This document shows positions 566 through 55,936 of a DNA stretch of 64,000 nt, one piece after another. The position numbers and the translations under genes were made by a program. Source of the DNA: Desmodus rotundus (lineage: Eukaryota; Chordata; Mammalia; Chiroptera; Phyllostomidae); assembly GCF_022682495.2 (NCBI RefSeq), contig NC_071391.1:81371161-81435160 (forward strand), written 5' to 3'. The notes beneath the pieces were generated by a model. That model was not told where the DNA came from. It made no database searches and worked only from the letters and a program-made list of their open reading frames with translations. Each line of letters starts with the position of its first letter. The first letter of the stretch is position 1.

Positions 566-1699
566 TTCTTTTTCCTTTCTTTTCTTTTCTTTTCTTTTTA
601 ATTATTTTTATTTTTTAATTTTAATTTTTATTTTTATTCAATTACAGTTGTGTGCCATTTCTCCCCATCCCTCCACCCCACCCTGGCTGAACCCCCCTAC
701 CTCCCCCACCTCCACCCTCCCCCTTGGTTTTGTCCATGTGTCCTTTGTAGTAGTTCCTGAAAATCCTTCTCCCCATCGTCCCCTCCCCCTTCCCCTGTGG
801 CTATTGTTAGATTGTTCTTAACTTCAATGTCTCTGGTTATATTTTATTTGCTTTTTTCTTCTGTTGATTATGTTCCAATTATGGGTGAGATCATATGGTA
901 TTTGTCTGTCACCTCCTGGCTTATTTCACTCAGCATAATGCTCTCCAGTTCCATCCATGCTCTTGCAAAGGGTAGGGGCTCCTTCTTTCTCTCTGTTGCG
1001 TAGAATTCCATTGTGTGAATGTACCATAGTTTTGTGATCCACTCATTTGCTGACGGGCATTTAGGTTGCTCCCAGTACTTGGCTATTGTAAATTGTGCTG
1101 CCATGAACATTGGGGTGCATAGCTTCTTTTGGATTGATGTTTCAGGGCTCTTAACAAGGGACATAAAGGAAATAATAATCAAATGGGACCTCATCAAATT
1201 AAAAAGCTTCTGCATGGCTAAGGAAAACAGCATTAAAATGAAAAGAGAACCAACTATTTGGGAAAACATATTTGCCAATGATACCTTAGACAAGGGTCTG
1301 ATCTCCAAAATATATATAAAGAACTCACACAACTCCACTCCAGGAAGACAAAAAACCCAATTAAAAAATGGGCAAAAGAGTTGAACAGACACTTCTCCAA
1401 GGAGGACATACAGAGGGCCCGGAGACATATGAAGAGATGCTCAGCATCACTAGCCATCAGAGAGATGCAAATTAAAACCACAATGAGGTACCATCTCACA
1501 CCAGTCAGAGTGGCCAACATAAACAAATCAACAAACAAATGTTGGAGAGGATGTGGAGAAAAGGGAACCCTAGTGCACTGTTGGTGGGAATGCAGACTGG
1601 TGAGGCCACTGTGGAAAACAGTATGGAATTTCCTCAGAAAACTAAAAATGGAACTGCGTTTTGACCCAGCAATTCCATTGTAGGGATTATACCCTAACA
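566..1699 (-). mobile_element. 5'-inverted (twin-primed) L1 insertion
   Basis: Positions about 600-1155 are the reverse complement of an L1 3' UTR and ORF2 C-terminus, matching the full-length copy at 9.08-9.63 kb. From about 1156 the orientation flips: 1156-1699 reads in ORF2 sense on the plus strand, from the region encoding [16 protein letters not shown] through the cysteine-rich [19 protein letters not shown] segment. The two arms meet at the same ORF2 point (the TTATACCCTAA region), the signature of twin priming. The T/C-rich stretch 569-600 is the antisense A-tail expanded into a short (CTTTT)n microsatellite. I could not find a clear TSD. Both arms carry stops and no product is expected. 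Confidence 0.85.
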
Positions 1700-1769
1700 A
1701 TGGCTATTTTAAATCACATCTGGCATTGCCATTAGTTATATGAAAAGAACAGAGGTTTTAAAAGTGAAA

Positions 1770-5726: not shown

Positions 5727-6032
5727 TTAACTTTAAAAAAAAAATTTTATTGTTATTCAGTTACAGTTGTCTGCATTTTCTCCCCACGCCTCCACCCTCC
5801 CCCTTGATTTTGTCCATGTGCCCTTTGTAGTAGTTCCTATAAACCCCTCTCCCCACCATCCCCTCCCCACTTCCCTCTGGCTATTGTTAGATTGTTCTTA
5901 ACTTCAATGTCTCTGGTTATATTTTGTTTGCTTTTTTCTTTTGTTGATTATGTTCCAGTTAAGATCTATGCTCCAGGTGAGATCATATGGTATTTGTCCC
6001 TCCGGAATTCTACGCAACAGAGAGAAAGAAGG
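5727..6032 (-). mobile_element. Short L1 insertion with 30-bp 5' inversion
   Basis: Minus-strand L1 3' end from about 5730 to 6002, followed by about 30 bp (6003-6032, GGAATTCTACGCAACAGAG...) in the opposite orientation, so a very small twin-priming inversion. It is flanked by a perfect 15-bp TSD, TGCTTCAGGATTTTT (5712-5726 and 6033-6047). Relative to the full-length copy it has an insertion of about a dozen bases near 5962-5975, beside the GTTCCAGTTAA block. It is far too short to encode anything. Confidence 0.92.
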
Positions 6033-6047
6033 TGCTTCAGGATTTTT
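6033..6047. repeat. TSD of the 5.7-kb L1, right copy
   Basis: TGCTTCAGGATTTTT, identical to 5712-5726. Confidence 0.9.
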
Positions 6048-7325: not shown

Positions 7326-7509
7326 AGTCAATTATTTATTCTTTTAACAAATATTTTTAAGGCCTACCTAGCTCTGTGTCAGGCACTGGAAATATGGTGG
7401 TGAAAAACACATGATTCATGCTTTTGTGTGTGCTATTTTGGCATAGAAAATGCATAGAATAGAAATATACTTCAATCATAGAAGGGAGGAAAAAGAGCAC
7501 TTTTTTTGC

Positions 7510-8450: not shown

Positions 8451-8835
8451 CTGATAACACTGGAAGAAAATGTCTAGAACTTCCCCTTACCTGGTTTTCA
8501 AATGACTAACAATAAAGTCTCTTTAATCAAAAAGGACCTATGTGCTTGCCTCTAAACTTAGAAGATGGGAAAGGAATGATTGCTTAATTTCCATTCTTCT
8601 TCATTTTGTTGAGGTGGAGGATCCCAGGTGATCATGGGAATTGTGGCACTGCTAAATTGTGAAGGAAGGCAGACTGAATCTCTGCAGAGAGAGGCCAACC
8701 TAGGGTAGGGGGTAGAGGGGGCTGGCAAAGAGGAGAAGGGCAGAAACTCAGAAGGTTTTACCTAAGAAGGTGGAGATCCTGGTTTAGGAATTGGAATTTT
8801 AGAGCTGGAATGGGATTCGGAGATCATCTAATTCC

Positions 8836-9050
8836 TTGCTTCTCAAGGTGTAGTTTGTGGATCACTCAGGAGCTAGTTTGATGGCTTTGGGGGTGGGAGA
8901 AGTGGGATTAGGGAGGGGAAAGAGTAGACAATGTTTTTTTATATAGCTCTGAATAACTTAACATATAAACTCTTACCCCAGATCTGCTAAATCAGAATCT
9001 GCATTTTAACAAGATTCCCAAGTGGTTCTTTTGCAAGTTGTACTTGAGAT
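8836..9050. repeat. MER5-like hAT-Charlie fragment
   Basis: 'CTTGCTTCTCAAGGTGTAG...GTGGATCA' at one end and 'AATCAGAATCTGCATTTTAAC' then 'AAGATTCCCAAGTGGTTC' near the other are typical of MER5-type non-autonomous hAT elements of placental mammals. The terminal repeats are degraded. Confidence 0.6.
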
Positions 9051-9058
9051 CAACAAAT

Positions 9059-9076
9059 GAAATTCCCATTATTTTT
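9059..9076. repeat. TSD of the full-length L1, 3'-side copy
   Basis: GAAATTCCCATTATTTTT, 18 bp, perfectly repeated at 15839-15856. On the plus strand the empty site reads TTTTT/AAAG, close to the L1 endonuclease consensus TTTT/AA. Confidence 0.95.
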
Positions 9077-9090
9077 TTTTTTAAATTTTT

Positions 9091-9096
9091 TTTATT
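9091..9096 (-). terminator. L1 polyadenylation signal
   Basis: AATAAA in L1 sense (TTTATT on the plus strand), immediately upstream of the A-rich tail. Other copies in the window have the same arrangement. Confidence 0.75.
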
Positions 9097-9341
9097 GTTA
9101 TGCAATTACAGTTGTATGCCTTTTCTCCCCATCCCTCTACCCCACCCCAGGTGAACCCACCTCCCTCCCCCCTCTCCACCCTCCCCCTTGGTTTTGTCCA
9201 TGTGTCCTTTATAGTAGTTCCTGTAATACCCTCTTCCCACTATCCCCGCCCCCACCCCCCACCCCCCGCCCTGGCTATTGTTAGATTGTTCTTAACTTCA
9301 ATGTCTCTGGTTATATTTTGTTTGCTTTTTTCTTCTATTGC
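9097..9341 (-). other. L1 3' UTR with polypurine G-rich tract
   Basis: In L1 sense, positions about 9280-9122 are a purine tract with many runs of three or more G. It is followed by the conserved 'CATACAACTGTAATTG' type terminus and the polyA signal. Guanine-rich tracts in the 3' UTR are a known property of mammalian L1s and can fold as G-quadruplexes. Folding here is inference. Confidence 0.75.
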
Positions 9342-12300
9342 TTATGTTCCAGTTAAAGGTGAGATCATATGGTACTTGTCCCTCACTTCCTGGCTTATTT
9401 CACTTAGCATAATGCTCTCCAGTTTCATCCATGCTGTTGCAAAGGGTATAAGCTCCTTCCTTCTCTCTGCTGCGTAGAATTCCATTGTGTAAATATACCA
9501 TGGTTTTTGGATCCACTCGTTTGCTGATGGGCACTTCGGTTGCTTCCAGTACTTGGCTATTGTAAATTGTGCTGCTATGAACATTGGGGTGCACAGATTC
9601 TTTTGGATTGGTGTTTCAGTGTTCTTAGGGTATAATCCCAGCAGCGGAATTACTGGGTCAAAGGGCAGTTCCATTTTTAGTTTTCTGAGGAAATTCCATA
9701 TTGTTTTCCACAGTGGCCTCACCAGTCTGCATTCCCACCAACAGTGCACAAGGGTTCCCTTTTCTCCACATCCTCTCCAACATTTGTTTGTGGATTTGTT
9801 TATGTTGGCCATTCTGACTGGTGTGAGATGATACCTCATTGTGGTTTTAATTTGCATCTCTCTGATGGCTAGTGATGCTGAGCATCTTTTCATATGTCTC
9901 TGGGCCCTCTGTATGTCTTCCTTGGAGAAGTGTCTGTTCAAGTCCTTTGCCCATTTTTTAATTGGGTTGTTTGTCTTCCTGGAGTGGAGTCGAATGAGTT
10001 CTTTATATATTTTGGAGATCAGGCCCTTGTCTGAGGTATCGTTGGCAAATATGTTTTCCCATACTGTTGGTACTCTTTGTAATTTGGTGCTGTTTTCTTT
10101 AGCCATGCAGAAGCTTTTTATTTTGATGAGGTCCCATTTGTTTATTCTTTCCTTTATGTCCCTTGCTTTAGGGGATGTGTCTGTGAGGATGTTGCTGCGT
10201 GGAATGTCTGAGATTTTCCTGCCAATGTTTTCCTCAAGGACTTTTATGGTGTTACGGCTTATATTTAAGTCTTTTATCCATCTTGAGTTTATTTTCGTGT
10301 ATGGCGTAAGTTGGTGATCGAGTTTCATTTTTTTGCACGTAGCTGTCCAGATCTCCCAACACCATCTGTTGAAGAGGCTGTTTTTGCTCCATTTTATGCT
10401 CCTGCCTCCTTTGTCAAATATTAATTGATCGTATAGACTTGAGTTTATTTCTGGGCTCTCTATTCTGTTCCATTGGTCTATGTGCCTGTTTTTATGCCAG
10501 TACCAGGCTGTTTTGATTACAGTGGCCTTGTAATACAGTTTGATATCAGGTATTGTGATCCCTCCTGCTTTGTTTTTCTTTCTCAAAATTGTTGCAGCTA
10601 TTCGAGGTCGTTTATGGTTCCATATGAATTTCTGCAATGTTTGTTCTATATCTGTGAAATATGTCATGGGTACTCTAATAGGGATTGCATTGAATCTATA
10701 AATTGCTTTGGGTAGTATGGCCATTTTGATAATGTTGATTCTTCCAATCCATGAACATGGTACATGCTTCCATTTGTTTGTATCTTCCTTAACTTCTTTC
10801 TTCAGTGTTGTGTAGTTTTCTGAGTACAGGTCTTTTACCTCCTTGGTTAGGTTTATTCCTAGGTACTTTATTTTTCTTGTTGCTATATCGAATGGGATTT
10901 TTTTCCTGATTTCTGTTTCTGCAGTTTCGTTGCTGGTGTACAGGAATGCCTTTGATTTCTGGGTATTGACTCTGTATCCAGCTGTTTTGCCAAATTCATT
11001 TATTAGGTCGAGTAGTTTTTGAGTGGAGTCTATAGGGTTTTCCATGTACACTATCATGTCGTCTGCAAACAGTGACAGTTTCATTTCCTCCTTTCCAATT
11101 TGGATGCCTTTTATTGCTTTTTCTTGTCTGATTGCTGTGGCTAGGACTTCCAATACTATGTTGAATAGGAGTGGTGAGAGAGGGCATCCTTGTCTAGTTC
11201 CTGATCTTAGTGGGAAAGCTCTAAGTTTTTGTCCATTGAGTGTGATGTTGGCTGTAGGTCTCTCATATATGGCCTTAATTATGTTGAGGACTGCTCCCTT
11301 TATTCCCACTTTGCTGAGTGTTTTTATCAGAAATGGGTGCTGTATCTTATCAAATGCTTTTTCCGCATCTATTGATATGATCATGTGATTTTTGTCTTTG
11401 CTGTTGTTGATGTGATGTATTATGTTTATTGATTTGCGAATATTGTACCATCCTTGCATCCCTGGGATGAATCCCACTTGGTCATGGTGGATGATCTTTT
11501 TAATATATTGCTGGATGCGGTTTGCTAATATTTTGTTGAGAATTTTAGCGTCTATGTTCATCAGCGATATTGGCCTGAAGTTTTCTTTCTTTGTTGTGTC
11601 TTTATCTGGTTTTGGGATTAGGATGATGTTGGCTTCATAAAAAGAGTTTGGGAGTCTTCCATCAGTTTGGATTTTTTCGAATAGTCTGTGAAGGATAGGG
11701 GTTAGTTCTTCCTTAAATGCTTTGTAGAAATCTCCTGTGAAACCATCTGGTCCAGGGCTTTTGTGTGATGGGAGTTTCTTGATGACTGCTTCAATTTCCT
11801 TTGCTGATATTGGTCTGTTCAGGTTTTCTGCTTCTTCTTCATTCAGTTTTGGAAGATTATATTTTTCTAGAAATGTGTCCATTTCATCTAGGTTTTCAAA
11901 TTTCTTAGCATACAGGTCTTCATAGTAATTTCTTACGATCCTTTGTATTTCTGTGGTATCAGTTGTAATCTCTCCACTTTCATTTCTAATTCTGTTTATT
12001 TGGATCCTCTCTCTTTTCTTTTTGATGAGCCTACTTAAAGGCTTGTCAATTTTGTTTATCTTTTCAAAGAACCAGCTCCTGGATTCATTGATCCTTACAA
12101 TTGTGCTTTTAGTCTCTATGTCATTTAGTTCTGCTCTGATCTTGGTTATTTCCTTCCTTCTGCTTGCTCTGGGCTGTTTTTGTTGTTGTTCCTCCAGTTC
12201 TTGTAGGCGTAGGGTTAGGTTGTTTGTTTGAACTGTTTCTAACTTCTTAAGGTAGGCCTGTATTGCTATGAACTTCCCTCTCAGGACTGCCTTTGCTGTG

Positions 12301-13163
12301 TCCCATAGGTTTTGGGTTGTTGTGAGTTCGTTTTCATTTGTTTCCAGGAAGTTTTTGATTTCTTCCCTAATCTCGTTCTTGACCCATTCATTGTTTAATA
12401 GCATGCTATTCAGTCTCCATGCTTTTGAGTGTTTTGGGTTTTTACCCTTGGCGTTGGTTTCTAGTTTCAGACCCTTGTGGTCAGAGAAGATGCTTGATAT
12501 GATTTCAATTTTCTTGAATTTGTTGAGGCTTGCTTTGTGTCCTATCATGTGGTCTATCTTTGAAAAAGTTCCATGGACACTTGAAAAGAACGTGTATTTT
12601 GCTTCTTTGGGATGAAAAGCTCTGTATATATCAGTTAAGTCCATTTCCTCTAAGATATTGTTAAGTGACACAATATCTTTGTTGATCTTTTGTTTGGAAG
12701 ACCTGTCCATTTTTGATAGTGGGGTGTTAAAATCCCCTACTATAATTGTGTTGCTGTCAATATCTTTCTTGAAATCCTCCAATATTTTCTTTATGTATTT
12801 GGGTGCTCCTATGTTGGGTGCATATATATTTACAATGTTTATGTCTTCTTGGTGGATTCTTCCTTTGAGTATTATGAAGTGACCTTCTGGGTCTCTCTTT
12901 ATGGCCCTTCTTTGGAAGTCTATTTTGTCTGATAAGAGTATTGCTACCCCTGCTTTTTTTTCCTGTCCGTTTGCTTGGAAAATTTTTTTCCAGCCCTTCA
13001 CTTTCAGTCTGTGTAAGTCTTTTGTCCTGAGATGGGTTTCTTGTAGGCAGCATATGTGTGGGTCATGTTTTCTTATCCATTCAGCTGTTCTATGTCTTTT
13101 GATTGGAGCATTTAATCCATTTACATTTAAGGTTATTATCGATAGGTAGTTATTCATTGCCAT
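9342..13163 (-). CDS. L1 ORF2p: endonuclease-reverse transcriptase (intact)
   Basis: 1273 aa, against 1275 in human L1. It nicks target DNA and copies L1 RNA by target-primed reverse transcription. The N-terminal apurinic-type endonuclease (about 1-235) has N13 (LNVNG), E42 (QETHL), D144 (GDFN), D204 (KIDHM) and D228-H229 (SDHKG), all at the human positions minus one. The RT domain holds the palm motif [11 protein letters not shown] and FADD with D701-D702. The C-terminal cysteine-rich segment [19 protein letters not shown] lies near residues 1125-1150. The start is the first ATG after the 46-bp spacer following ORF1, and translation is presumably by reinitiation as in other L1s. There is no internal stop or frameshift in 3.8 kb, unlike every other ORF2 in the window. 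Confidence 0.96.
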
Positions 13164-13209
13164 TATTTCCTACCTGTGTTCCTCTGTCTTTCTCTTTTCC
13201 TTCCTTTCC
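13164..13209 (-). other. Inter-ORF spacer of the L1
   Basis: 46 bp between the ORF1 stop and the ORF2 ATG, rich in A and G in L1 sense. Mammalian L1 spacers are typically a few tens of bases and place ORF2 for unconventional reinitiation. Confidence 0.85.
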
Positions 13210-14142
13210 TTAAAGCAGTCCCTTTAGCATCTCTTGCAGAGCTGGTTTGGTGGAGCTGTATTCTTTTAGACTTCTTTTGTCTGGGAAGCTCTTTATTTGG
13301 TCTTCTATCTTGATTGAGAGCCTTGCTGGGTAAAGTAGTCTTGGTTGGAGGCCTCTGGTTCTCATTACTTGGAATATTTTTTGCCATTCTCTTCTGGCTT
13401 GGAGCGTTTCCATTGAGAAGTCAGTTGCTAACCTTATCGGGGCTCCCTTGTATGTTACTTCCTTTTTCTCCCTTGCTGCCTTTAAGATCCTCTCTTTGTC
13501 TTGGAAATTTGCCATTTTAATTATGATGTGTCTTGCAGTGGGTCTCTTTGGGTTCCTCTTGCTTGGGACTCTCTGTGTTTCCTGGATTTGGGTGACTTTT
13601 TCTCTCCTCAGATTAGGGAAATTTTCCATCATTACTTTTTCAAACAGGTTTTCTATCCCTTGCTCTTCTTCTTCTCCTTCTGGTATTCCTATTATACGGA
13701 TATTGTTACGTTTCATGTTGTCCTGCATTTCCCTTATTGCCTCTTCATTCTTTCTGAGCCTCTTTTCCTTTTCTTGCTCCTTCTGGGTGTTTTTTTCTAC
13801 TTTATCCTCCAGCTCGCTGATCCGATCCTCTGCTTCATCAAGTCTGCTTTTAATTCCTTCTACTGTGTTCTTCAATTCAGAAATTGTATTCTTCATTTCC
13901 GCTTGGCTCTTGTTGATATTTTCTATTTCCTTTTTCATGTTGATATAGTTTGCAGTGAGTTCATTGTAGTTTCCTTGTAGTTTCTGGTAGTTCTCTTTGA
14001 GCTCAGAGAGCTCAGTGAGTTTCCTGATGACCATTGCTTTGAACTCAGTATCTGATAGTTGACTTGCCTCTTTTTCGGTTAGTATTCTTTCTGAGACTTC
14101 CTCCTTTCCTTTCATTTGGGAATTGTTTCTTTGTCTTCCCAT
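13210..14142 (-). CDS. L1 ORF1p: RNA-binding nucleic-acid chaperone (intact)
   Basis: 310 aa. ORF1p trimers coat L1 RNA and act as chaperones in the cytoplasmic L1 RNP. Visible organisation: a short basic N-terminus (MGRQRNN, 1-45), a long heptad-rich coiled coil (about 45-143, with EIENINKSQAEMKNTISELK and LDEAEDRISELEDKVEK), an RRM (about 145-240, starting at RIIGIPEGEEEE and including ARHIIIKM), and a C-terminal domain (about 241-310, ETLQARREWQKIF, LLYPARLS, KPALQEMLKGLL). The ATG at 14142 has A at -3 and G at +4 and begins the conserved MGRQRN start shared with the copy at 55936. No stop or shift. It is slightly shorter than human ORF1p (338 aa), mostly in the N-terminal half. Confidence 0.96.
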   Translation of the reverse strand: MGRQRNNSQMKGKEEVSERILTEKEASQLSDTEFKAMVIRKLTELSELKENYQKLQGNYNELTANYINMKKEIENINKSQAEMKNTISELKNTVEGIKSRLDEAEDRISELEDKVEKNTQKEQEKEKRLRKNEEAIREMQDNMKRNNIRIIGIPEGEEEEQGIENLFEKVMMENFPNLRREKVTQIQETQRVPSKRNPKRPTARHIIIKMANFQDKERILKAAREKKEVTYKGAPIRLATDFSMETLQARREWQKIFQVMRTRGLQPRLLYPARLSIKIEDQIKSFPDKRSLKEYSSTKPALQEMLKGLL

Positions 14143-14368
14143 TGTTTCTGAGGTTCTTCTTGTTGGCCTCTGCGTCTTAAATTGCTTTGTTCTGACTCCC
14201 TGGATTTATGATATGAACTTCTATGGTAGAATGCCAATGGGATTCGGTGGTGCTGTCTCCTTACTCTCCTGTGCTCACTGGTCTTGAGCTGACGTTTATG
14301 TGTTTAACACGGTCTATCTCTAGTCTTTTCAGCACTCCAGGTTTTGTTGTCTCACCTGTGGGAAAAAG

Positions 14369-14730
14369 AGAAAGGGGGGGCGAAAGAAAAGCAAAAAAAA
14401 AAAAAAACACACACACACACACACACAGAAAACAAACCAAAAGAAAGATGGGAAGGAGGGAAAAAGGAAATAGGAAAGGAGGAAAGGAAGGAAGGAGGGA
14501 AGAATAAAGAAAGATCGGAGGCAAGATAAGAAGGAATTTTAGCAAAAATTAAAACATAGAAATAGATAAAAGAAGGCAGGAAGAAGACATAAAAATGGTA
14601 AAGGATGGGAGGAAGAAGGAATGAAAAAAAAGAAAAAAAGAGAGAGGAAGAAGGAATTCAGGGGGAAAGGAAAAAAAAAGAAAAAGGATAAAAAAAAAAC
14701 AAAAAAAAACAAAACAAACAAAAAAAAACC
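14369..14730 (-). repeat. Low-complexity purine tract with (CA)n in the L1 5' UTR
   Basis: A/G-rich on the plus strand with A-runs, GGAA repeats and an 11-unit CA microsatellite at 14407-14428. The homologous tract in the second L1 lies at about 56155-56420 but lacks the CA run, so the microsatellite is copy-specific or lineage-specific. Confidence 0.8.
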
Positions 14731-15807
14731 TTCTGTTGGCTTTAAACCGGTCAGGTTATTTCTGCTGGTGTCCTGTCTGTGCAACGGGAGGGGGTGTTTG
14801 GAAGGATTGGTTTCACTTTTCTCTCTTCCTGGGTCACACTCTTCGCTGTTTTGTAAGTGTGGTCCCTGGCAGTCAATCAGTCCGTTGATCAGCCAATCCA
14901 GCTGCTTTGGCTCGTGACGCGTGCGCGCGCAGCAGGGGAATCCAGCTGCTTTGGGTCTGTGACGTTATTTTGTGCCCTGAGCGCGCAGCCGGCGGACCAA
15001 TAGAGCCGCCAGGGCTTGGAACGCTGGCGCGCAGGTGGCGGATTCAGCAGCCTTGGGGTTAGGACACTCGCCAGCAGCTTTGTATTTAGAAAACAGGCAC
15101 CCAGCCGGCCCTGTGCTTGGTGAGCGCGCGCAGCCCGCTGAGCCACAGGCTCTGTGCTTGGGGGCCCGATCCAGCCGCCCTGGGCTTGAGTCTCTGGGGC
15201 GGGCGGGGCCGCCCTGGGACTGAATCACGCGGCACTCGGTTCCGAGGTTTTGGGCCTGTGGGTAGAGCAGCTAGACTCTGGTCCAAATTATCTCGGAGGT
15301 TTCAGGTGTGGGCGCCCCTCCGGGGTTTCAAGTGTGGGTCCCGTTCGCTAATCTGCTCGCGCGCGACCGGACCTCAGGTGAGCGTAGCAGTCCAGGGGTG
15401 GCGGGGGAGGGGCGCCAGGGGCCTCGGCTACTACCGAGAGTTCTCTAATTAGCCCCTGAGTGTCTCTATTTTCTTTTTCTTTTTGAGAAATTCCTCCTTT
15501 TCAAGCCCCCCTGGTCTAATCAAGCACCTGGCTGCTCACAGCGCAGCCTGGCCCTCTCCCAAGACTCCTGCCGCAGCCCCTGCGCCAGGGCTGGCGCTTC
15601 TGCCGCCCTTGTACCGCGCGGTCCTGGGTCCCGTGGACCTTATTGTCCTTCAGCACTCTTCTTACCGTCAGATCTTTCAGTGTCCTCTATCTTTGGTCTC
15701 TGATCTTCGTATATGCTGGAATACTGTTGGCTGTTCGCTCTGCTCCTCAGATCAGCTAGGTATTTCCCTGGCGTTGAGGGGAAGTGGACTCCGCTCCCAC
15801 CTATGTT

Positions 15808-15818
15808 GCCGCCATCTT
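15808..15818 (-). promoter_or_regulatory. YY1-like motif at the L1 5' end
   Basis: In L1 sense this reads AAGATGGCGGC, within the first about 30 bases of the element. A YY1 site here sets correct initiation in human L1. Assignment is by motif only. Confidence 0.6.
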
Positions 15819-15838
15819 CCCCCTTAATGAAATTTCTC

Positions 15839-15856
15839 GAAATTCCCATTATTTTT
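15839..15856. repeat. TSD of the full-length L1, 5'-side copy
   Basis: GAAATTCCCATTATTTTT, identical to 9059-9076. Confidence 0.95.
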
Positions 15857-15960
15857 AAAGTTAGGAATCTGAGACTTTTAGGAGGTGAAGTGATCTGTTC
15901 AAGTCACATGGGGATATTTGTGGCAGAGAAAGAACCAGAAATAGGTCTCTTGACCCCTGT
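15857..15960 (-). repeat. MIR SINE fragment
   Basis: Reverse-strand MIR wording: 'GGAATCTGAGACTTTTAGGAGG', 'GAAGTGATCTGTTCAAGTCAC', then 'GAACCAGAAATAGGTCTC'. The full-length L1 inserted at its edge. Confidence 0.6.
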
Positions 15961-17500
15961 TCCTTTATTTTCTCATCATATCTTGGAGCTCCTCTCTATA
16001 TTATTTAGCTATTCACTCTATTTGGTATACATTTTGTAATTCCCAACCCCCTCTAAAAATCTAAAGTAATTTTTAGAGGTACAGTGTTTTATTTATTGGG
16101 TCTATATTGAACTGAGACTATTATTCTTGCAGTAGGGCAATGAGTGAACTCAAGGTCAACTTCAATTGCCAGCATTATTGAAAGTGCCTTGGTCTAATGC
16201 CCTGGAAGTTTCTTAAATGTCCATGGCAATTGGACTTTAGTCCCTTATAAATTTGCTGTCACCAGATCCAAGTGGTATCATGATCTAAAGGACAATTTAA
16301 AGGGTCAGAATCTCTGACCACAGAGTTAACACAAACATCTTCCCTTTGTTCTGTCTTCTACCTGCGTTCTGCTCTTATTCCCTCCCATTTTCATTAAAGG
16401 TTTAATTATGCTCCTTGATTTTGATCACAGATTTATTAAATGTTTAAGTATATATCCCCTGAATGATGGTTTCTCAGTAATGAGGTGCATTCAGAAGGAG
16501 AATAGCTGGTCAAGCATGGGTATAATTTGGAGGAGTTTGACATCAGCCATTTCATCTCTGACAGGGTTAATCACTACTTTGGTTTTTCAAGCCCTGGGCT
16601 TGCTGGACTGTGTATGCCAAAGGCAGTCTGGGTACCCCAAATTAATTTTAAAGACATATGACTGCTTGGAGTTCACTGAGTTATCAGCTCACAATATTAA
16701 AAGAAATTACTCATTCTAGTTCCCTTCAAATTATGAACCAAAATATAAATTGGCTAGAAATGGTTAGAAAATAATACGCCATTGTATTAGAAAAATGTCA
16801 ATAGGGATTGCTGCATGTACAGGCTAAGGCAAAATCTTAGAGTCTACCTTTCTGAAAACATGCAGGTCATGTTAGAAGAATAGCAGAGTAATGAGTTAAT
16901 CCTATTCAATAAAGACTTAATAGGTACCTCTTCTGTATAAAACACCATTTTAGATGTTAGGATAGGGAGGGTCCAAAAGTGGGTCTATGTTGGAGATGTA
17001 GTGTAAGTATGAGGATAAGAATAGTAGTCAACATTTGTCATTCTAGGCAGGATATCAGAATCATGACAGAGGTCCACATTCTGTGGGAATTCACACAGGG
17101 TATTCATCTCTATGTGGGAACAGGAAAGGCCAGAAATGGTAGTATTTAAGATGGACTCTTAAATACAGAATTTTAAAAACCTTTCTAATTTAATAGCTTA
17201 CTATTCCTTTTTATTCAATTTCTTACTAATGTAACATGTGGGTTTTCTAATAAGTTAAGTCATTCAGAGTTATATAAAGAAACATTATTTACTCTTTCCC
17301 TTCTAATCCCACTTCTCCCACCTCCAAAGTAATCGATGCCAACATTGATTTGTATAAGGTTTGTATATACTTACTCATCTAAACGTATCTACACATAGAT
17401 TACTGCCTAAAACTTTATTTTCTTGTTGTTGTTGTTATTTATTTAGTTATTTTACACAGGAGGATATTATATACATTATTTTACAATATATATTTTAAAA
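15960..17500. other. Unassigned sequence, no gene seen
   Basis: No gene recognised. A diverged ancient-repeat phrase occurs near 16900-16960 ('ATTCAATAAAGACTTAATAGG...'). The frame at 16408-16719 has no recognisable domain. Confidence 0.4.
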
Positions 17501-18689: not shown

Positions 18690-19503
18690 GAAAGCATAGA
18701 TCAAAACTCCAGAAAAAGAACTAAGCAACAAGGAAATAGGCAACCTATCAGATGCAGAGTTCAAAACAATGGTAATCAGGATGCTCACAGAAATGATTGA
18801 GTTCAGTCACAAAATGATGGAAGAAATGAAGTCTATACAAAATGAAATAAAGGAAAATATATAGGAAACTAACAGTGAAGGAAAGGAAACGGTGACTCAA
18901 ATCAATGATTTGGAACAAAAGGAAGACATAAACATCCAACCAGAACAGGATGAAGAAACAAGAATTTGAAAAAATGAGGAGAGTCTAAGGAACCTCTGGA
19001 ACAACTTTAAACATTCTAACTTCCAAATCATAGGGATGCCAGAATGAGAAGAGAAGAGCAAGAAATTGAAAACTTATTTGAAAAAATAATGAAGGACAAC
19101 TTCCCCAATCTGGTGAAGAAAATAAACATGGAAGTCCAGGACTCTCAGAGAATCCCAAAGCACTTGGATCCAAGAAGAAACACACCAAGACACAGCATCG
19201 TTAAGTTACCCAAGATTAAAGATAAAGAGAAAATCTTAAAAGCAGCAAAAGCAAAGGAGACAGTTACCTACAAAGGAGTTCCCATAAGACTGTCAGCTTA
19301 TTTCTCAAAAAAACCTTACAGGCAAGAAGGGGCTGGAAAGAAGTATTCAAAGTCATGAAAGGAAAGGACCTACATGTAAGATTATTCTATCCAGCAAAGC
19401 TATCATTTAGAATGGAAGGGCAGATAAAGTGCTTCCCAGATAAGATAAAGGAGTCCATCACTACCAAGCCCTTATTATATGAAATGTTAAAGGGACTTAT
19501 CTA
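18690..19503 (+). pseudogene. HAL1-type ORF1 remnant
   Basis: ORF1p-like translation in pieces. The coiled-coil part near 18720-18860 is stopped by an in-frame TAG ('GAAAATATATAG'). The RRM/C-terminal part is open in 19044-19358 (ENLFEKIMKDNFPNL, RHSIVKLPKIKDKEKILKAA, ETVTYKGVPIRLSAY) and continues in a shifted frame to KPLLYEMLKGLI. So it has at least one stop and one frameshift, plus an L1 inserted at the very end of the coding region. It cannot give a full ORF1p. Confidence 0.8.
19489..19503. repeat. TSD of nested L1, left copy
   Basis: AAAGGGACTTATCTA. The last two bases may belong to the L1. Identical to 19764-19778. Confidence 0.88.
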
Positions 19504-19763
19504 TTTTGTTTGCTTTTTTCTTCTGTTGATTATGTTCCAGTTAAAGGTGAGATCATATGGTATTTGTCCCTCACCATATGGCTTATTTCACTTAGCATAA
19601 TGCTCTCCAGTTCCATCCAAACAGGAACTACTATGAAGGACACATGGACAAAATCAAGGGGGAGGGTGGAGGTGGGGGAGGGAGGTGGGTTCAGCGGGGG
19701 TGGGGTGGAGGGATGGGGAGAAAAGGCATACAACTGTAATTGAATAACAATAATTTTTTTAAA
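19504..19763 (+). mobile_element. 260-bp 5'-inverted L1 inside HAL1 element 1
   Basis: 19504-19618 is reverse-strand L1 (ORF2 C-terminus and start of the 3' UTR), and 19619-19763 is the forward L1 3' UTR with A-rich tail, leaving out about 90 bp between the arms. It is flanked by AAAGGGACTTATCTA at 19489-19503 and 19764-19778, so the host HAL1 sequence resumes exactly where it broke. The first arm overlaps the TSD end by about two bases of microhomology. Confidence 0.92.
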
Positions 19764-19778: not shown

Positions 19779-19843
19779 AGAAAAAGAAGATCAAAAACTA
19801 TGAGCAGTAAAATGACAACAAACTCACAAACTTACTGAACCTA

Positions 19844-21487
19844 GGAGAAGTGCCTGTTCAAGTCTTTTGCCCATTTTTTAATTGGGTTTTTTGTCTTCCT
19901 GGAGTGGAGTCTTGTGAGTTCTTTATATATATTTTGAAGATCAAACCCTTGTCTGAGGTATCATTGGAAAATATGTTTTCCCATATAGTTGGTTCTCTTT
20001 TCATTTTAATGCTGTTTTCCTTAGCCATGCAGAAGCTTTTTAATTTGATGAGGTCCCATTTGATTATTCTTTCCTTTATGTCCTTTGACTTAGGGGACAT
20101 GTCTGTGAAGATGTTGCTGCATGGAATGTCTGAGATTTTCCTATTGATGTTTTCCTCTAGGACTTTTATGGTGTCATGACTTGAACAGACACTTCTCCAA
20201 GGAGGACATACAAAGGGCCGAGAGACATATGAAAAGATGTTCAGCATCACTAGCCATCAGAGAGATGCAAATTAAAACCATAATGAGATACTACCTCACA
20301 CCAGTGAGTATGGCCATCATAAACAAATCAACAAACAACAAGTGTTGGAGAGGATGCAGAGAAAAGGGAACCCTAGTGCACTGTTGGTGGGAATGCAGAC
20401 TGGAGCAGCCACTGTGGAAAACAGTATGGAATTTCCTCAGAAAGCTAAAAATGGAACTGCCTTTTGACCCAGCAATTCCACTGCTGGGATTATACCCTAA
20501 GAGCCCTGAAAAACCAGTCCAAAAGAACCTATGCACCCCAATCTTCACAGCAGCACAATTTACAATAGCCAAATGCTGGAAGCAACCTAAGTTGCTTATG
20601 TACCATGCTTATGGATTGGAAGAATTAACATCATCAAAATGGCCATACTACCCAAAGCAATTTATAGATTCAATGCAATCCCTATTAGAGTACCCATGAC
20701 ATATTTCACAGATATAGAACAAACATTTTAGAAATTTATATGGAACCATAAACGATCCCGAATAGCTGCAGCAATTTTGAGAAAGAAGAACGAAGCAGGA
20801 GGGATCACAATACCTGATATCAAACTGTATTACAAGGCCACTGTAATCAAAACAGCCTGGTACTGGCATAAAAACAGGCACATAGACCAATGGAACAGAA
20901 CAGAGAGCCCGGAAATAATCCCAAGTCTTTATGGTCAATTAATATTTGATAAAGGAGGCAGAAGCATAAAATGGAGCAAAAATAGGTTGAAAGAACCTAT
21001 GCACCCCAATGTTCATGGCAGCACAATTTACAATTGCCAAGTACTAGAAGCAACGTAAGTGCCCATCAGCAAATGAGTGGATCACAAAACTATGGTACAT
21101 TCACACAATGGAATTCTATGCAACAGAGAGAAAGAAGGAGCCCCTACCCTTTGCAAGAGCATGGATGGAACTGGAGAGCATTATGCTGAGTGAAATAAGC
21201 CAGGCAGTGAGGGACAAATACCATATGATCTCACCTTTAACTGGAACATAATCAACAAAAGAAAAAAGCAAACAAAATATAACCAGAGATATTGGAATTA
21301 AGAACAATCTAACAATAGCCAGAGGGGAGGGGGGTGGGGACAGTGGGGAGAAGGGTTTTCAGGAACTACTATAAAGAACACATGGACAAAACCAAGGGGG
21401 AGGGTAGAAGCAAGGGAGGGAGGCTGGGGTGGCAGGGCGTGGTGGGGAGAAATTGCAGACAACTCTAATTGAACAACAGTAAAGTAA
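19844..21487 (+). mobile_element. Mosaic L1 inserted in HAL1 element 1
   Basis: Four blocks, given by their match to the full-length copy. (a) 19846-20178, reverse strand, ORF2 region of 9927-10250. (b) 20181-about 20597, forward, continuing exactly from 9925 to about 9530. (c) About 20598-20991, forward but upstream ORF2 sequence (about 10760-10385). (d) About 20992-21487, forward, 9600 to the 3' end. Blocks a-b are a perfect twin-priming inversion. Blocks c-d are joined by the same ORF2 deletion found at 52.19 kb. Block b jumping back to block c is not explained by a single colinear template. The tail ends in AACAACAGTAAAGTAATTAAAAAA. No convincing TSD was found. Confidence 0.85.
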
Positions 21488-21831
21488 TTAAAAAACAATC
21501 TAAAAACCAAAAACTAAACAAACAACTAGAACAGAAATAGAATCACAGAAATGCAGATCGCATGGAGGGTTATCAGTGGGGAGGCAGAGTGGGGAGAATG
21601 GGGGAAAAGGTACAAAGAATAAGAAGCATAATTTGTGGGCACAAAATAGATGGGGGGAGGTTAAGAATAGTATAGGAAATGGAGAAGCCAAAGACCCTAT
21701 ATATACGACCCATGGATATGAACTAAGAGGGGATATGCTGGAGGGTGGGGGTGCAGGGCTGAGGGGGATGAAGGGAAGAAAACATTGGGACAACTGTAAT
21801 AGCATAATCAATAAAATATGCTTTAAAAAAA

Positions 21832-29139: not shown

Positions 29140-30450
29140 AATTGTTTGTGCTATTACAGTTGTCCCAGTTTTTCCACCTTTGCTCCCCCCAGCTCACTCC
29201 AGACTTCCACAATCATGGGTCCTTCTTATAGGTTCTTTCACTAATCCCTTCACCTTCTTTCAATCAGTCCCCACCTCCACCCTTTCTTCTTATAGCTGTC
29301 AGTATGTTCGATGACTCTATGCCTCTGGTTTTATTTTGCTCCCTAGCTTATTTTGTTCATGTGAGTCCACTTATAAATGAGATCATGTGACGTTTGTCTT
29401 TCACTAGCTGGCTTATTTCAATTAGCATAATAGTCTCCAGTTCAATCCATGCTGTCGTAAAAGGTAGGAATTCCTTCTTTTTTTCTGCTGTGTAGTATTC
29501 CATTGTGTAAATATACCACAGTTTTTTAATCCACTCACCAACTGATGGGTGCTGATGTTGTTTCCAAAGCTTGGCTATTGTAAATAGTACTACTATGAAC
29601 ACTGGGGTGCATGTATTGTTTTGAATTGGTGTTTCGGGATTCCTAGGGTATATTTCCAGCATAAGAACAGATACATAGATCATTGGAACAGAATAGAGAG
29701 CCCAGAAATAAACCCATGTCTCTATGGTCAGTTGATATTTGACAAAGAGGGCATGTGCATACAATGGAATAAAGACAGTCTCTTCAATAAATGGTTCGGG
29801 GAGAACTGGTATGTACATGAAAAAAAATGAAGCTAGACCACCAACTTACACCATACATCAGGATAAACTCAAAATGGATAAAAGATTTAAATATAAGTCA
29901 TGATACCGTAAAAATCCTAGTGGAAAAAATGGGCAGTAAAATTTCAGATGTCCCACACAGCAATATTTTTGCTGATATATCTCCTAAGGCAAGGGAAATA
30001 GAAGAAAAAATAAACAAGTGGGACTACATGAAATTAAAAAGCTTCTGCACAGGTAAAGAAACCATCATCAAAATGAAAAGGGAACCAACCATATGTGATA
30101 ACATAAAGGGTCCAGCACAAATAATGCCTTTTTTATTATAAAACCTTTTATTACAAAATCATAAGCATGTAATTCTGGAACATAATATCATACTCGAGCA
30201 CACCATATGACATTTTAAGTGAAAAGTTCAAATTGCTGTCTGTCTCACGCAAGACATTCCGATACCTTACCAACTACACTCAAGCAAGCCTCACTTCTGC
30301 TGGACCCTTTATTTGCCAATGATACACTGAACAGGGTTTAACCTCCAAAATATATAAAGAAGTCATATGACTCAACATAAGGAAGACAATCTAATTTAAA
30401 AAAGGGGCAAAAGACCTGAATAGACACTTCTCCAAGGAGGACATAAAGAA
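29140..30450 (-). mobile_element. Twin-primed older L1 with nested transposon
   Basis: 29140-29655 is reverse-strand L1 3' UTR and ORF2 C-terminus ('GCTATTACAGTTGTCCCAG', 'CTGGCTTATTTCAATTAGC'). From 29660 the strand switches: 29660-30105 and 30312-30450 read in ORF2 sense (translation includes [20 protein letters not shown] and INKWDYMKLKSFCTGKE). About 250 bp of ORF2 is missing between the arms. A 204-bp DNA element (30106-30309) interrupts the second arm. Stops are present throughout. Confidence 0.85.
30106..30309. mobile_element. Tc1/mariner-like MITE, 204 bp
   Basis: Terminal inverted repeats start AAGGGTCCAGCA at the left end and, read from the other strand, AAGGGTCCAGCA at the right end, with weaker similarity further in. 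TA lies on each side (30104-30105 and 30310-30311). Removing the element and one TA restores the L1 phrase GATAACATATTTGCCAATG, so both boundaries are certain. It has no transposase and no frame of note. TA target choice places it in the Tc1/mariner/pogo superfamily; I do not recognise the exact family. Confidence 0.85.
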
Positions 30451-32400
30451 GGCACCTAGAAAATATTTGCACATCCTTTTCTCAAATCATGGTGAAATAA
30501 AATGGATAGATTTGGTCAGAGCAGCAAAAGAGGAAATAATTCTATTTAAAGAGAAAGCTAAGGAACCACTGGATAAAGATGAAAATGCAAAAAACAAACA
30601 AACAAACAAAAACCCAAAATGTTAACTTACAGTTAAAGAATAAAGTGATGTGGGAAGTGCTAGAGAGAGATGTGGAACAAGAAGCATTGGGAAAAAAATC
30701 ATAGAAGATCAGCAAGAACCCATAAATAAATGGAAATGAATAGGTCACAGATTTAAAGGACAAAGAAAGGGAAGTAAAACTGTCCAGGCTGGGTTAGCTG
30801 AAGGAAAAGTACAGTGTTAGAGCAAGAAAATGAAATTTGGTAGTAATGATGAATGCGATAAAAAATGGTGCAGCTGAACCAGTAAAAAGAACACAAGGAG
30901 AAATGAAGGTGAATCTGCATCAAAACAGCAGAAAACAGAAAATTGTTCTGGAGACCAGTAGTTCAGTAAACAATTTTTTAAAATTAATTTTAATTCAATT
31001 TTAAGCTGCTTCTGTCTTTGAAGATTTTTTAAAAGGAAACCAAATTAGGTCCACTTTAATGTCCACCTCTGAGAAAAGCATTTTGTTCTTGTTGAACTTG
31101 TCCTATTTTTTTTTTTTTTTGGTATTCAAAGAGGATTTTTTAAAATGCATGGTTCTGTTTGTATTATTTCAGATGATACAAATATCAAAAGAAAGATTCT
31201 TCCACTATACTGCCTTTGTAATGTGAGGGTATATTTAAGTAAAAATTAATCAAATATATAGTATATGCAAAAAAAAGAAGGAGCCTTTTAAAAAGTAAAA
31301 TCTCAGTAACTCCCAAAAGTAAAACAAAAATTACAGCTTTTTTTAGATTGATTTTTATACTTAAATTATTTTTTCATCAAGATACAAAGGGAATATATTT
31401 TAACAGTGAGAAGAATGTTGTTGGTTTCCTGATAATTGGGTCTCCTTAAGTATGAGAAATTATACCCTATTCTTTTGTGATGAGAAGCAGGGCACCAAGA
31501 CTCCCATTATTGTTTCACTTAGAAGCATTGAGGCATATGAATGGACTTTTTAGTATAGACGATAAGCTGTGAGGCTATTTTGGGGAAAAAGGAAGGCAGG
31601 AGAATACAGAAAGAGGAGAAATGTCTCCCTTTGCACCATTTGAATCCTTCACAGTGAAGTGCCTAGATTAGTCTGTGGGGAGAGCTTGTTACTGTGTTCA
31701 AGGCTGCTTGAAATATATGGGCTATCTTGTCCAGAAGAAGGGGAAGACTGGACGAAGCTAAGACTGTGATTGGTAAATAGTCAGCAGTCACTCATATGAG
31801 CCAGGATGGGGATGTTTGATCATGTATATAGTTGGCAATGTTCATGTTTTTTCTGTGTCCAGACATGGTTGTGGAGTGGTCTTGTTTTTGTCTTGAACTA
31901 TCCTCGTCACAGAGTGGCCTGTCTGAAATTGGCATTCTGGAAAATTATTTATGTTCAACAGGAGAACACCAAGGCCTAGCTGTGAGTGTCCGGTAAGTCT
32001 GGAGGTCACCAGTTGCATACCCTCCCTCACCTGGGAGGACCCACTGGTCCACCTTCTGCTATAGCATTCATAGTTCCACAGCCCATATCTAGGACAGGAA
32101 AGAATGTGAATGCCAGTGGCTCCTTCATCCATCTCTCTCTTTTGGCTTCTTTGTGTATGGACCAACTGTAATTATTCCTCTTCTCTCAAATTCGCATCTT
32201 CAGTTCAAGTGAGCACTAGAAACTAACTAGGGTCTCTAAATCTTAACTCTGGATTTCCTAGAAAGAGAATATGATTCTCCTTGACTAGGAGGGAAAGATT
32301 GTGCAAGACAAATATAATTCCCCAAGCCCACTCTGTAAAGGGGAGCAATCCTCAAATAAAAATGTTAGGCATTGCCTAACACAGAGATGATTTACCCAAG
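30450..32400. other. AT-rich unassigned sequence, no gene seen
   Basis: Contains a CAAA microsatellite at about 30594-30610 and a T15-type run near 31108-31122. No repeat family or coding region recognised. Confidence 0.45.
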
Positions 32401-51627: not shown

Positions 51628-51999
51628 TTTTGGGGGGGGGGGGTTAAGTTTTAGAGTTTTTATTACCTTTTGTAAATTTTTTTCTAATTTTTATTGTTAT
51701 TCAATTACAGTTGTATGCCTTTTCTCCGCATCCCTCCACCCCACCCCAGCTGAACCCACCTCCCTCCCCACCCTCCACCCTCCCCCTTGATTTTGTATAT
51801 GTGTCCTTTATACTAGTTCCTGTAATCCCCTCTTCTCACTGTCCCCTCCCCACTCCACCCTGGCTATTGTTAGGTTGTTCTTAACTTCAATGTCTCTGGT
51901 TATATTTTGTTTCCTTTTTTCTTCTGTTGATTATGTTCCAGTTAAAGGAGAGATCATATGGTATTTGTCCCTCACCGCCTAGCTTATTTCACTTAGCAT

Positions 52000-54966: not shown

Positions 54967-55012
54967 TTTTTCATACCTGTGTTCCTCTGTCTTTCTCTTT
55001 TCCTTCCTTTCC

Positions 55013-55936
55013 TTAAAGCAGTCCCTTTAGCATCTCTTGCAGAGCTGGTTTGGTGGAGCTGTATTCTTTTAGACTTCTTTTGTCTGGGAAACTCTTTATT
55101 TGGCCTTCTATCTTGATTGAGAGCCTTGCTGGGTAAAGAAGCCTTGGTTGCAGGCCTCTGGTTCTCATTACTTGGAATATTTTTTGCCATTCTCTTCTGG
55201 CTTGGAGTGTTTCCATTGAGAAGTCAGTTGCTAACCTTATTGGGGCTCCCTTGTATGTTACTTCCTGTTTCTCTCTTGCTGCCTTTAAGATCTTCTGTTT
55301 GTCTTGGAATTTTGCCATTATAATTATGATGTGTCTTGCAGTGGGCCTCTTTGGGTTCCTCTTGCTTGGGACTCTCTGTGTTTCCTGGATTTGGGTGACT
55401 TTTTCTCTCATCAGATTAGGGAAATTTTCCATCATTACTTTTTCAAACAGGTTTTCTATCCCTTGCTCTTCTTCTTCTCCTTCTGGTATTCCTATTATAT
55501 CGATATTGTTATGTTTCATGTTGTCCTGCATTTCCCTTATTGCCTCTTCATTCTTTCTGAGCCTCTTTTCCTTTTCTTGCTCTTTCTGGGTGTTTTTTTC
55601 TACTTTGTCCTCCAGCTCACTGATCTGATCCTCTACTTCATCAAGTCTGCTTTTCATTCCTTCTACTATGTTCTTCAGTTCAGAAATTGTATTCTTCATT
55701 TCCTCTTGGCCCTTGTTGATAGTTTCTATTTCCTTTTTCATGTTGATATAGTTTGCAGTGAGTTCATTGTAGTTTCCCTGTAGTTTCTGGTAGTTCTCTG
55801 TGAGCTCAGTGAGCTTCCTGGTAAGCATTGCTTTGAACTCAGTATCTGATAGTTGACTTGCCTCTTTTTCAGCTAGCATTCTTTCTGAGGCTTCCTCCTT
55901 TCCTTTCATTTGGGGATTGTTTCTTTGTCTTCCCAT
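55013..55936 (-). CDS. L1 ORF1p, second copy (open frame intact)
   Basis: 307 aa, colinear with the 310-aa ORF1p of the intact L1 but three residues shorter near residue 45 (ELTENYQKLQ versus ELSELKENYQKLQ). N-terminal MGRQRNN, coiled coil (about 42-140), RRM from about 143 (IIGIPEGEEEEQG, ARHIIIIMAKF) and C-terminal domain ending KPALQEMLKGLL are all present. The start is the same ATG as in the intact copy. Its downstream ORF2 is dead, so any protein could only act with ORF2p from another L1. Whether the decayed promoter still works is unknown. Confidence 0.88.
   Translation of the reverse strand: MGRQRNNPQMKGKEEASERMLAEKEASQLSDTEFKAMLTRKLTELTENYQKLQGNYNELTANYINMKKEIETINKGQEEMKNTISELKNIVEGMKSRLDEVEDQISELEDKVEKNTQKEQEKEKRLRKNEEAIREMQDNMKHNNIDIIGIPEGEEEEQGIENLFEKVMMENFPNLMREKVTQIQETQRVPSKRNPKRPTARHIIIIMAKFQDKQKILKAAREKQEVTYKGAPIRLATDFSMETLQARREWQKIFQVMRTRGLQPRLLYPARLSIKIEGQIKSFPDKRSLKEYSSTKPALQEMLKGLL

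What the first reader, a model, noticed from the sequence alone, without database searches (positions are those of the whole stretch)
9059..15856. Structurally intact full-length L1, a candidate source element
Seen: perfect 18-bp TSD, ORF1 (310 codons) and ORF2 (1273 codons) both open, endonuclease residues N13, E42, D144, D204, D228-H229 and RT D701-D702 present, polyA signal, and a CpG-rich 5' UTR that has not decayed. Known: those residues are required in human and mouse L1. Inference: a young, possibly active 'hot' L1 in this bat. It is the only copy of at least eight L1s in the window with an open ORF2.
Basis: partly seen in the sequence, partly recalled or inferred. Interest (0 to 1): 0.8.

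Follow-up and report, generated by a model that had tools for sequence, protein, structure and literature searches.

The report
Intact full-length bat LINE-1 insertion
This is a complete, fairly recent copy of the common mammalian jumping gene LINE-1 with both of its genes still readable; it may still be able to copy itself, but it is an ordinary member of a well-known family and its activity is untested.

Summary
On the minus strand, 9077-15838 is a full-length L1 between identical 18-bp target-site duplications (TSDs) that start at an L1 endonuclease-type site. ORF1 (310 aa) and ORF2 (1273 aa) are open, the named catalytic residues are present, and the 5' UTR keeps its CpGs (observed/expected 0.70; 0.17-0.22 in older copy B). 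Readability, CpG content and a single private ORF1 residue point to a young insertion. Correction: 15 nt of filler lie between the TSD and the presumed 5' end, so transcripts should start near 15823, not 15838. 'Hot source element' is not shown: the own-genome search did not complete in 11 of 11 attempts, so no progeny were counted. Against a very recent hot copy: a short A-tail (11 A, 5 possibly target) and ORF2 residues D478, I938 and V1171, which none of the relatives compared share. Intact LINE ORFs are already reported in some bats. Ordinary member of a known kind. Side finding: copies B and C share one identical 774-bp ORF2 deletion with the same 4-bp filler, suggesting an internally deleted L1 that moved on other elements' ORF2 protein; substitutions beside the join do not unite B and C, so recombination would also be needed.

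The parts
15839..15856 (-). 5' copy of the 18-bp target-site duplication
   Evidence: identical to 9059-9076; begins at TTT|AAAAA in the empty site
15824..15838 (-). 15-nt filler at the 5' junction, 9 nt (AATTTCATT) shared with the target site
   Evidence: longest shared word 9; 211 of 20000 random 15-mers from the window reach 9
14143..15823 (-). 5' UTR / presumed internal promoter, CpG-rich in its first ~980 bases, no tandem monomers found in that part
   Evidence: CpG; tandem arrays only at 14439-14729, in the pyrimidine-rich part
15808..15818 (-). AAGATGGCGGC, YY1-type site directly after GGGGG
   Evidence: motif at element offset 20; it holds the reverse complement of the GCCAT core named in PMC11602158 (passages); function by analogy
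14359..14738 (-). pyrimidine-rich tract (85% C+T) between the CpG-rich part and ORF1
13210..14142 (-). ORF1, 310 aa: presumed coiled coil, RRM-like and C-terminal domains
   Evidence: PF02994 1.2e-24, PF17490 1e-19; human ORF1p 2ykp, 201 bits over 96-308
13900..13902 (-). ORF1 codon 81 (A), the only ORF1 residue found in no relative covering it
   Evidence: 0 of 53 relatives covering the position
13164..13209 (-). 46-bp spacer between the ORFs; in-frame TAG 9 nt before the ORF2 ATG
9342..13163 (-). ORF2, 1273 aa: endonuclease, reverse transcriptase, cysteine motif
   Evidence: PF03372, PF00078; human ORF2p 8sxt, 1972 bits over 3-1271
12477..13136 (-). endonuclease domain (aa 10-229)
   Evidence: residues
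10848..11618 (-). reverse transcriptase core (aa 516-772), FADD at 699-702, palm D599
11730..11732 (-). ORF2 codon 478 (D)
   Evidence: D in 0 of 118 RT relatives covering it (E 96, K 20, R 1, Q 1); E in 20 of 20 long ORF2s and E in copy B
10350..10352 (-). ORF2 codon 938 (I)
   Evidence: N in 20 of 20 long ORF2s and in the 3 window copies covering it; not covered by the RT relatives
9651..9653 (-). ORF2 codon 1171 (V)
   Evidence: A in 20 of 20 long ORF2s and in the 3 window copies covering it; not covered by the RT relatives
9729..9782 (-). C-terminal cysteine/histidine motif, aa 1128-1145
9229..9271 (-). G-rich run in the 3' UTR with G-quadruplex pattern
   Evidence: pattern match only
9091..9096 (-). 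AATAAA polyadenylation signal
9077..9090 (-). end of the element: AAAAATTT and 6 A of the tail (5 more A can belong to tail or TSD)
9059..9076 (-). 3' copy of the 18-bp target-site duplication

Best explanation
A full-length autonomous L1 (LINE-1) of a bat, inserted fairly recently by ordinary target-primed reverse transcription. Shown: both ORFs, the named catalytic residues, an endonuclease-type target site, a perfect TSD and a CpG-rich 5' UTR. Inferred: an RNA started near 15823 (YY1-type site) is translated into ORF1p and ORF2p, which bind that RNA, nick a TTTT/AA-like site and copy the RNA into the genome. I put about 45% on this copy being retrotransposition-competent at some level and about 10% on it being 'hot'. 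The stated confidence is for the anatomy and the age class, not for activity.
For: ORFs open; domains and homology to human ORF2p over almost its whole length and to human ORF1p over 96-308; TSD and target site; CpG kept; readability allows at most about 0.36-0.57% neutral change at P=5%, depending on the indel rate assumed; one private ORF1 residue; bat clade.
Against: Against youth and activity: 11 A after the encoded TTT, 5 of which can belong to the TSD, against a median of 50 nt and a minimum of 18 for de novo human Alu tails (PMC12633430, passages; Alu, not bat L1). ORF2 D478, I938 and V1171 occur in none of the relatives compared, R731 in 2 of 112 (32). No transcript, allele or progeny evidence.
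Confidence: 0.85

Rival explanations
1. A young, readable, but retrotransposition-dead L1: the frames are open, but private missense changes in ORF2 (or silencing) make it inactive, so it is a fossil that has not yet acquired stops.
For: D478, I938 and V1171 unlike the relatives compared; short tail. In humans only about 80-100 full-length competent L1s per genome, six of them giving over 80% of activity (PMC4072516, passage).
Against: D478 and V1171 look mild, and position 478 carries K in 20 of 118 RT relatives, so it is not strictly fixed; catalytic residues are intact; 6 of the 10 departures from invariant columns are shared with copy B, so they are lineage features, not decay.
Confidence: 0.4
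2. An older insertion kept readable by chance or by host use of the proteins.
For: short A-tail.
Against: CpG O/E 0.70 against 0.17-0.22 in copy B; perfect 18-bp TSD; P(no lesion) about 1e-6 at copy B's lesion rate; both ORFs and the TSD are kept together, which host use of one gene would not need.
Confidence: 0.04
3. Collapse or consensus artefact: an assembler merged several near-identical L1s, so the open frames belong to no single copy.
For: Young L1s are hard to assemble (general knowledge); read data were not available.
Against: Flanks joined by a perfect TSD on both sides; residues that no compared relative has are not expected of a consensus.
Confidence: 0.05

Closest known systems
Human L1 (ORF2p structures 8sxt, 8uw3, 9hdo; ORF1p 2ykp)
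   Same: domain order and catalytic residues; TSD and A-tail; a YY1-type site at the start of a 5' UTR without monomers (human 5' UTR features partly recalled)
   Different: 46-bp ORF spacer and an 85% pyrimidine tract before ORF1 in this element; ORF1 of 310 aa
L1 of phyllostomid bats (ORF1 fragment of Phyllostomus discolor, P0084)
   Same: in the ORF1 list the named entry with the highest identity, 78% over 71% of the query
   Different: a 216-aa fragment only; in the RT list the nearest named entries are Rhinolophus (83% over 85%) and Molossus (80% over 100%), with no phyllostomid named among the 120 listed
Extinct megabat L1, reconstructed (PMC4072516, passages)
   Same: bat L1; that reconstruction also carries private ORF2 changes (two) and moved at a low rate in culture
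   Different: long ORF spacer that lowers activity; activity lost ~24 million years ago according to that paper's abstract
HAL1 (half-L1), compared with copies B and C only
   Same: L1 derivative needing ORF2p from elsewhere; copy B keeps an open ORF1
   Different: B keeps endonuclease/RT sequence and lost only the 3' part of ORF2; C covers no ORF1

Membership tests
LINE-1 (L1) | ORF1 with L1 RRM and C-terminal domains | tested here: met
   PF02994 and PF17490 above cut-off; human ORF1p 201 bits. The trimer model PF17489 was not among the matches at 1e-3.
LINE-1 (L1) | ORF2 with APE-type endonuclease and RT | tested here: met
   PF03372, PF00078 above cut-off; 1972 bits to human ORF2p
LINE-1 (L1) | insertion by target-primed reverse transcription (TSD, A-rich 3' end, TT/AAAA site) | tested here: met
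LINE-1 (L1) | internal 5' UTR promoter | tested here: inconclusive
   CpG content and YY1-type site; no transcription data
retrotransposition-competent ('hot') L1 | activity in a reporter, or recent progeny | not testable with these tools
   own-genome search unanswered in 11 of 11 attempts
retrotransposition-competent ('hot') L1 | no stop, frameshift or lost catalytic residue | tested here: met
HAL1 (copies B and C) | encodes only ORF1p | tested here: inconclusive
   B has an open ORF1; its ORF2 carries the shared deletion plus 4 one-base deletions and 4 stops, but endonuclease/RT sequence remains; C covers no ORF1

The most novel reading that the evidence does not exclude
The window holds two halves of one system: a recent full-length L1 able to supply ORF1p and ORF2p, and an older internally deleted L1 form (copies B and C, one identical deletion and filler) that lost the end of its ORF2, multiplied on the ORF2 protein of its relatives while keeping ORF1, and exchanged its 3' end with co-active elements: an independent, half-way version of the HAL1 route in bats.
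Probability: 0.2. Interest if true: 0.45.

Novelty: new member of a known kind. Interest (0 to 1): 0.25.

Why it matters
L1 activity appears to differ sharply among bats. Intact LINE ORFs (complete RT and endonuclease domains) were reported in M. myotis, M. lucifugus and R. ferrumequinum but not in M. molossus, R. aegyptiacus or P. vampyrus (PMC10239488, passages). L1s counted as potentially active numbered 859 in the Jamaican fruit bat and 1 in Seba's short-tailed bat (PMC12424770, passages). That count used length within 10% of 6.1 kb and at most 5% divergence, not ORFs; at 6747 bp this element would fall just outside it. One readable copy is one more data point and a natural test element for such claims. 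The deleted form B/C would matter more if it proves numerous.

Tried and rejected
Own-genome search for near-identical copies: asked 11 times in the same form, never answered. IMG/VR scan with ORF1: 3 pattern matches, none a relative. Rfam at gathering scores: no match in the window. Splicing as the cause of the shared deletion: rejected, because in the undeleted copy the stretch after the left edge does not begin with GT and both deleted copies carry the same 4-bp filler. Selection on ORF1 alone in copy B's line: not supported, pN/pS is 0.36 in ORF1 and 0.35 in ORF2; ORF1 is nevertheless less diverged than ORF2 (40/924 against 196/2770, Fisher P 0.003), unexplained. Shared substitutions as support for a B+C lineage: tested with four older window copies as outgroups and not supported, see full report; for this I lowered the probability of the novel reading from 0.25 to 0.2. 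Naming the host species: not possible; most close ORF1 relatives are unnamed ENA entries. A Pfam scan of the window's non-L1 ORFs was prepared and not run.
Full report
What was checked. The minus strand of 8900-16000 was read and the ORFs of 8500-16500 listed. ORF2 (9342-13163) encodes 1273 aa and ORF1 (13210-14142) 310 aa, with no internal stop. Pfam finds the L1 RRM-like and C-terminal domains in ORF1, and endonuclease plus reverse transcriptase in ORF2. Human ORF2p matches over residues 3-1271 with 1972 bits, and human ORF1p over 96-308 with 201 bits. Residues N13, E42, D144, N146, D204, D228, H229, D701 and D702 are present, as are palm D599 and a cysteine motif at 1128-1145. That these residues matter in human and mouse L1 is general knowledge, not tested here.

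Insertion anatomy. The 18-bp TSD AAAAATAATGGGAATTTC is identical on both sides, and the empty site reads ...AACTTT|AAAAATAATGGG..., an L1 endonuclease type of site (canonical 5'-TT/AAAA-3' as in PMC12633430, passages). Between the 5' TSD and GGGGGAAGATGGCGGC lie 15 extra bases, GAGAAATTTCATTAA. Nine of them (AATTTCATT) occur in the target itself; 211 of 20000 random 15-mers from the window share as long a word, so copying from the target is suggested but not proven. That GGGGG is the true 5' end is inferred from the recalled human L1 start. Copy B is compatible, its match starting 5 bases further in (element base 21). AAGATGGCGGC contains the reverse complement of the GCCAT core of YY1 sites, and YY1 sets where human L1 transcription starts (PMC11602158, abstract and passages). 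The expected start is therefore about 15823.

Age. CpG observed/expected is 0.70 in the first 980 bases, against 0.22 and 0.17 in two parts of copy B's 5' UTR and 0.09 for the window without this element. A simple model gives a 5% chance of both frames staying open once 0.36-0.57% of sites have changed, depending on the indel rate assumed. With a recalled bat rate of about 2.4e-9 per site and year this is at most about 2.4 million years. The copy was picked because it is readable, so the bound is optimistic. For ORF1, 93 of 121 compared sequences (the 120 listed of 1968 hits, plus copy B) had a local match of at least 80% identity and were aligned. One residue, A81, is found in none of the 53 that cover it; N75 is found in 5 of 53. 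Against very recent insertion: after the encoded AATAAAAAAAATTT there are 11 A, of which 5 can belong to the TSD. De novo human Alu tails had a median of 50 nt and a minimum of 18. That comparison is with Alu, not bat L1, and tail length can also suffer in assembly.

Is ORF2 likely to work? Of the 120 listed ORF2 hits (of 431 found), 20 were aligned: those of at least 1170 aa, less three long ones that I left out by name (P0140, P0149, P0153; P0174, also named, was too short anyway). Of 364 columns invariant in them (at least 17 of 20 present), this copy departs at ten: 478, 481, 493, 573, 635, 731, 732, 839, 938, 1171. It departs at nine more that are invariant but for one sequence: 77, 131, 173, 253, 266, 410, 482, 727, 933. 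Copy B shares six of the ten (481, 493, 573, 635, 732, 839) and six of the nine (131, 173, 266, 410, 482, 727), so these are lineage features; 933, 938 and 1171 are deleted in B. Among RT relatives (120 listed of 7997 scored) D478 is found in 0 of 118 (E 96, K 20, R 1, Q 1) and R731 in 2 of 112. I938 and V1171 differ from the three window copies that cover each; R933 likewise differs from three. The RT relatives do not reach 933, 938 or 1171, so whether close bat copies share those residues is open. D478 and V1171 look mild, I938 does not. I found no direct test of these residues: the human counterparts E479 and N939 have no occurrence in the main text of PMC10830420.

Which animal. ORF1 falls in a clade (support 100/99) with copy B, seven unnamed ENA rows and Phyllostomus discolor; Myotis, Cnephaeus, Saccopteryx and horse lie outside (17 rows chosen by me, the two window copies and 15 of the 120 listed). 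By ORF1 the nearest named animal is thus a phyllostomid. The RT list does not add to this: its nearest named entries are Rhinolophus (83% over 85% of the query) and Molossus (80%), and no phyllostomid is named in it. The host is a bat; family and species are not settled.

Is it a source element? Not decided. No progeny, alleles or transcripts could be examined, since the own-genome search did not answer in 11 of 11 attempts. Intact LINE ORFs were found by others in three of six bats (PMC10239488, passages), and 859 L1s were counted as potentially active in the Jamaican fruit bat by length and divergence (PMC12424770, passages). An intact L1 in a bat is therefore no surprise. 'Hot' L1s are a small minority of full-length ones in humans (PMC4072516, passage). 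My estimate is 45% competent and 10% hot.

The other L1s. blastn and tblastn matches fall into about a dozen groups by my grouping. Copy B (57481 to about 51628, minus) begins near the L1 5' end and has a candidate 14-bp TSD with one mismatch (AGAAAGTAAACTCA/AGAATGTAAACTCA; chance not tested). Its ORF1 is open for 307 aa. Its ORF2 carries four one-base deletions and four stops up to about residue 930 and then lacks 774 bp. Copy C (20598-21495, plus) lacks exactly the same stretch. Both have AATAG-GTTG-AAAGAACC at the join, the only two exact places in the window, and both run into a stop at the same codon, 26 codons on from the AAA just before the join. C is 5'-truncated, and no TSD was found for it.

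The identical join and filler argue for one deletion event whose product was copied at least twice, which needs ORF2p from elsewhere because the end of ORF2 is gone. The substitutions beside the join do not support a simple B+C lineage, and this counts against it. In the 388-bp left block B and C differ at 21 sites, the intact copy and C at 22, the intact copy and B at 33; on the right side C is as far from B as from the intact copy (K2P 0.144 and 0.145) and B is closer to the intact copy (0.107). Polarised by four older window copies (outgroups at 7501, 61178, 611, 29316), sites uniting B with C number 4, 3, 3, 3; sites uniting B with the intact copy 0, 1, 15, 3; sites uniting C with the intact copy 0, 6, 1, 2. 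So either the deleted form exchanged sequence with intact relatives, or the history is otherwise mixed. Two copies do not show how large the form is. Two literature searches bear on it: HAL1; 12 of 104 papers listed; internal deletion, bat; 10 of 102 listed; among the titles seen none describes such a form in bats, which is not proof of absence. HAL1 is described in PMC5753468 (passage).

Verdict. Observation confirmed with small corrections, interpretation partly supported, ordinary in kind. The deleted form is the better lead, with the reservation just given.

Noticed in passing
window 51628-57481 (-) and 20598-21495 (+); junctions 52185-52200 and 20982-20997: Two L1 copies share one identical 774-bp ORF2 deletion with the same GTTG filler and the same downstream stop, a possible internally deleted L1 form; substitutions beside the join do not unite the two.
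   Followed up: partly
window 55016-55936 (-): Copy B keeps an open ORF1 of 307 aa although its ORF2 has eight lesions; about 2.7 lesions would be expected in ORF1 at that rate, P(0) 0.07.
   Followed up: partly
window 13210-14142 against 55016-55936: ORF1 of the two copies is less diverged than ORF2 (4.3% against 7.1%, Fisher P 0.003) with equal pN/pS, and the middle of the 5' UTR (element 440-990) does not align: possible recombination.
   Followed up: partly
window 611-1700, 5745-6037, 19502-19753, 19840-20592, 29316-30453, 61178-62821: Six L1 loci whose two halves lie in opposite orientation around a shared point, as in 5' inversion by twin priming.
   Followed up: no
window 15824-15838: 15-nt filler at the 5' junction with nine bases shared with the target site.
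   Followed up: yes
window 14359-14738 and 56168-56392: 85% pyrimidine tract (minus strand) between the CpG-rich 5' UTR and ORF1; copy B has purine-rich tandem arrays on the plus strand at the corresponding place.
   Followed up: no
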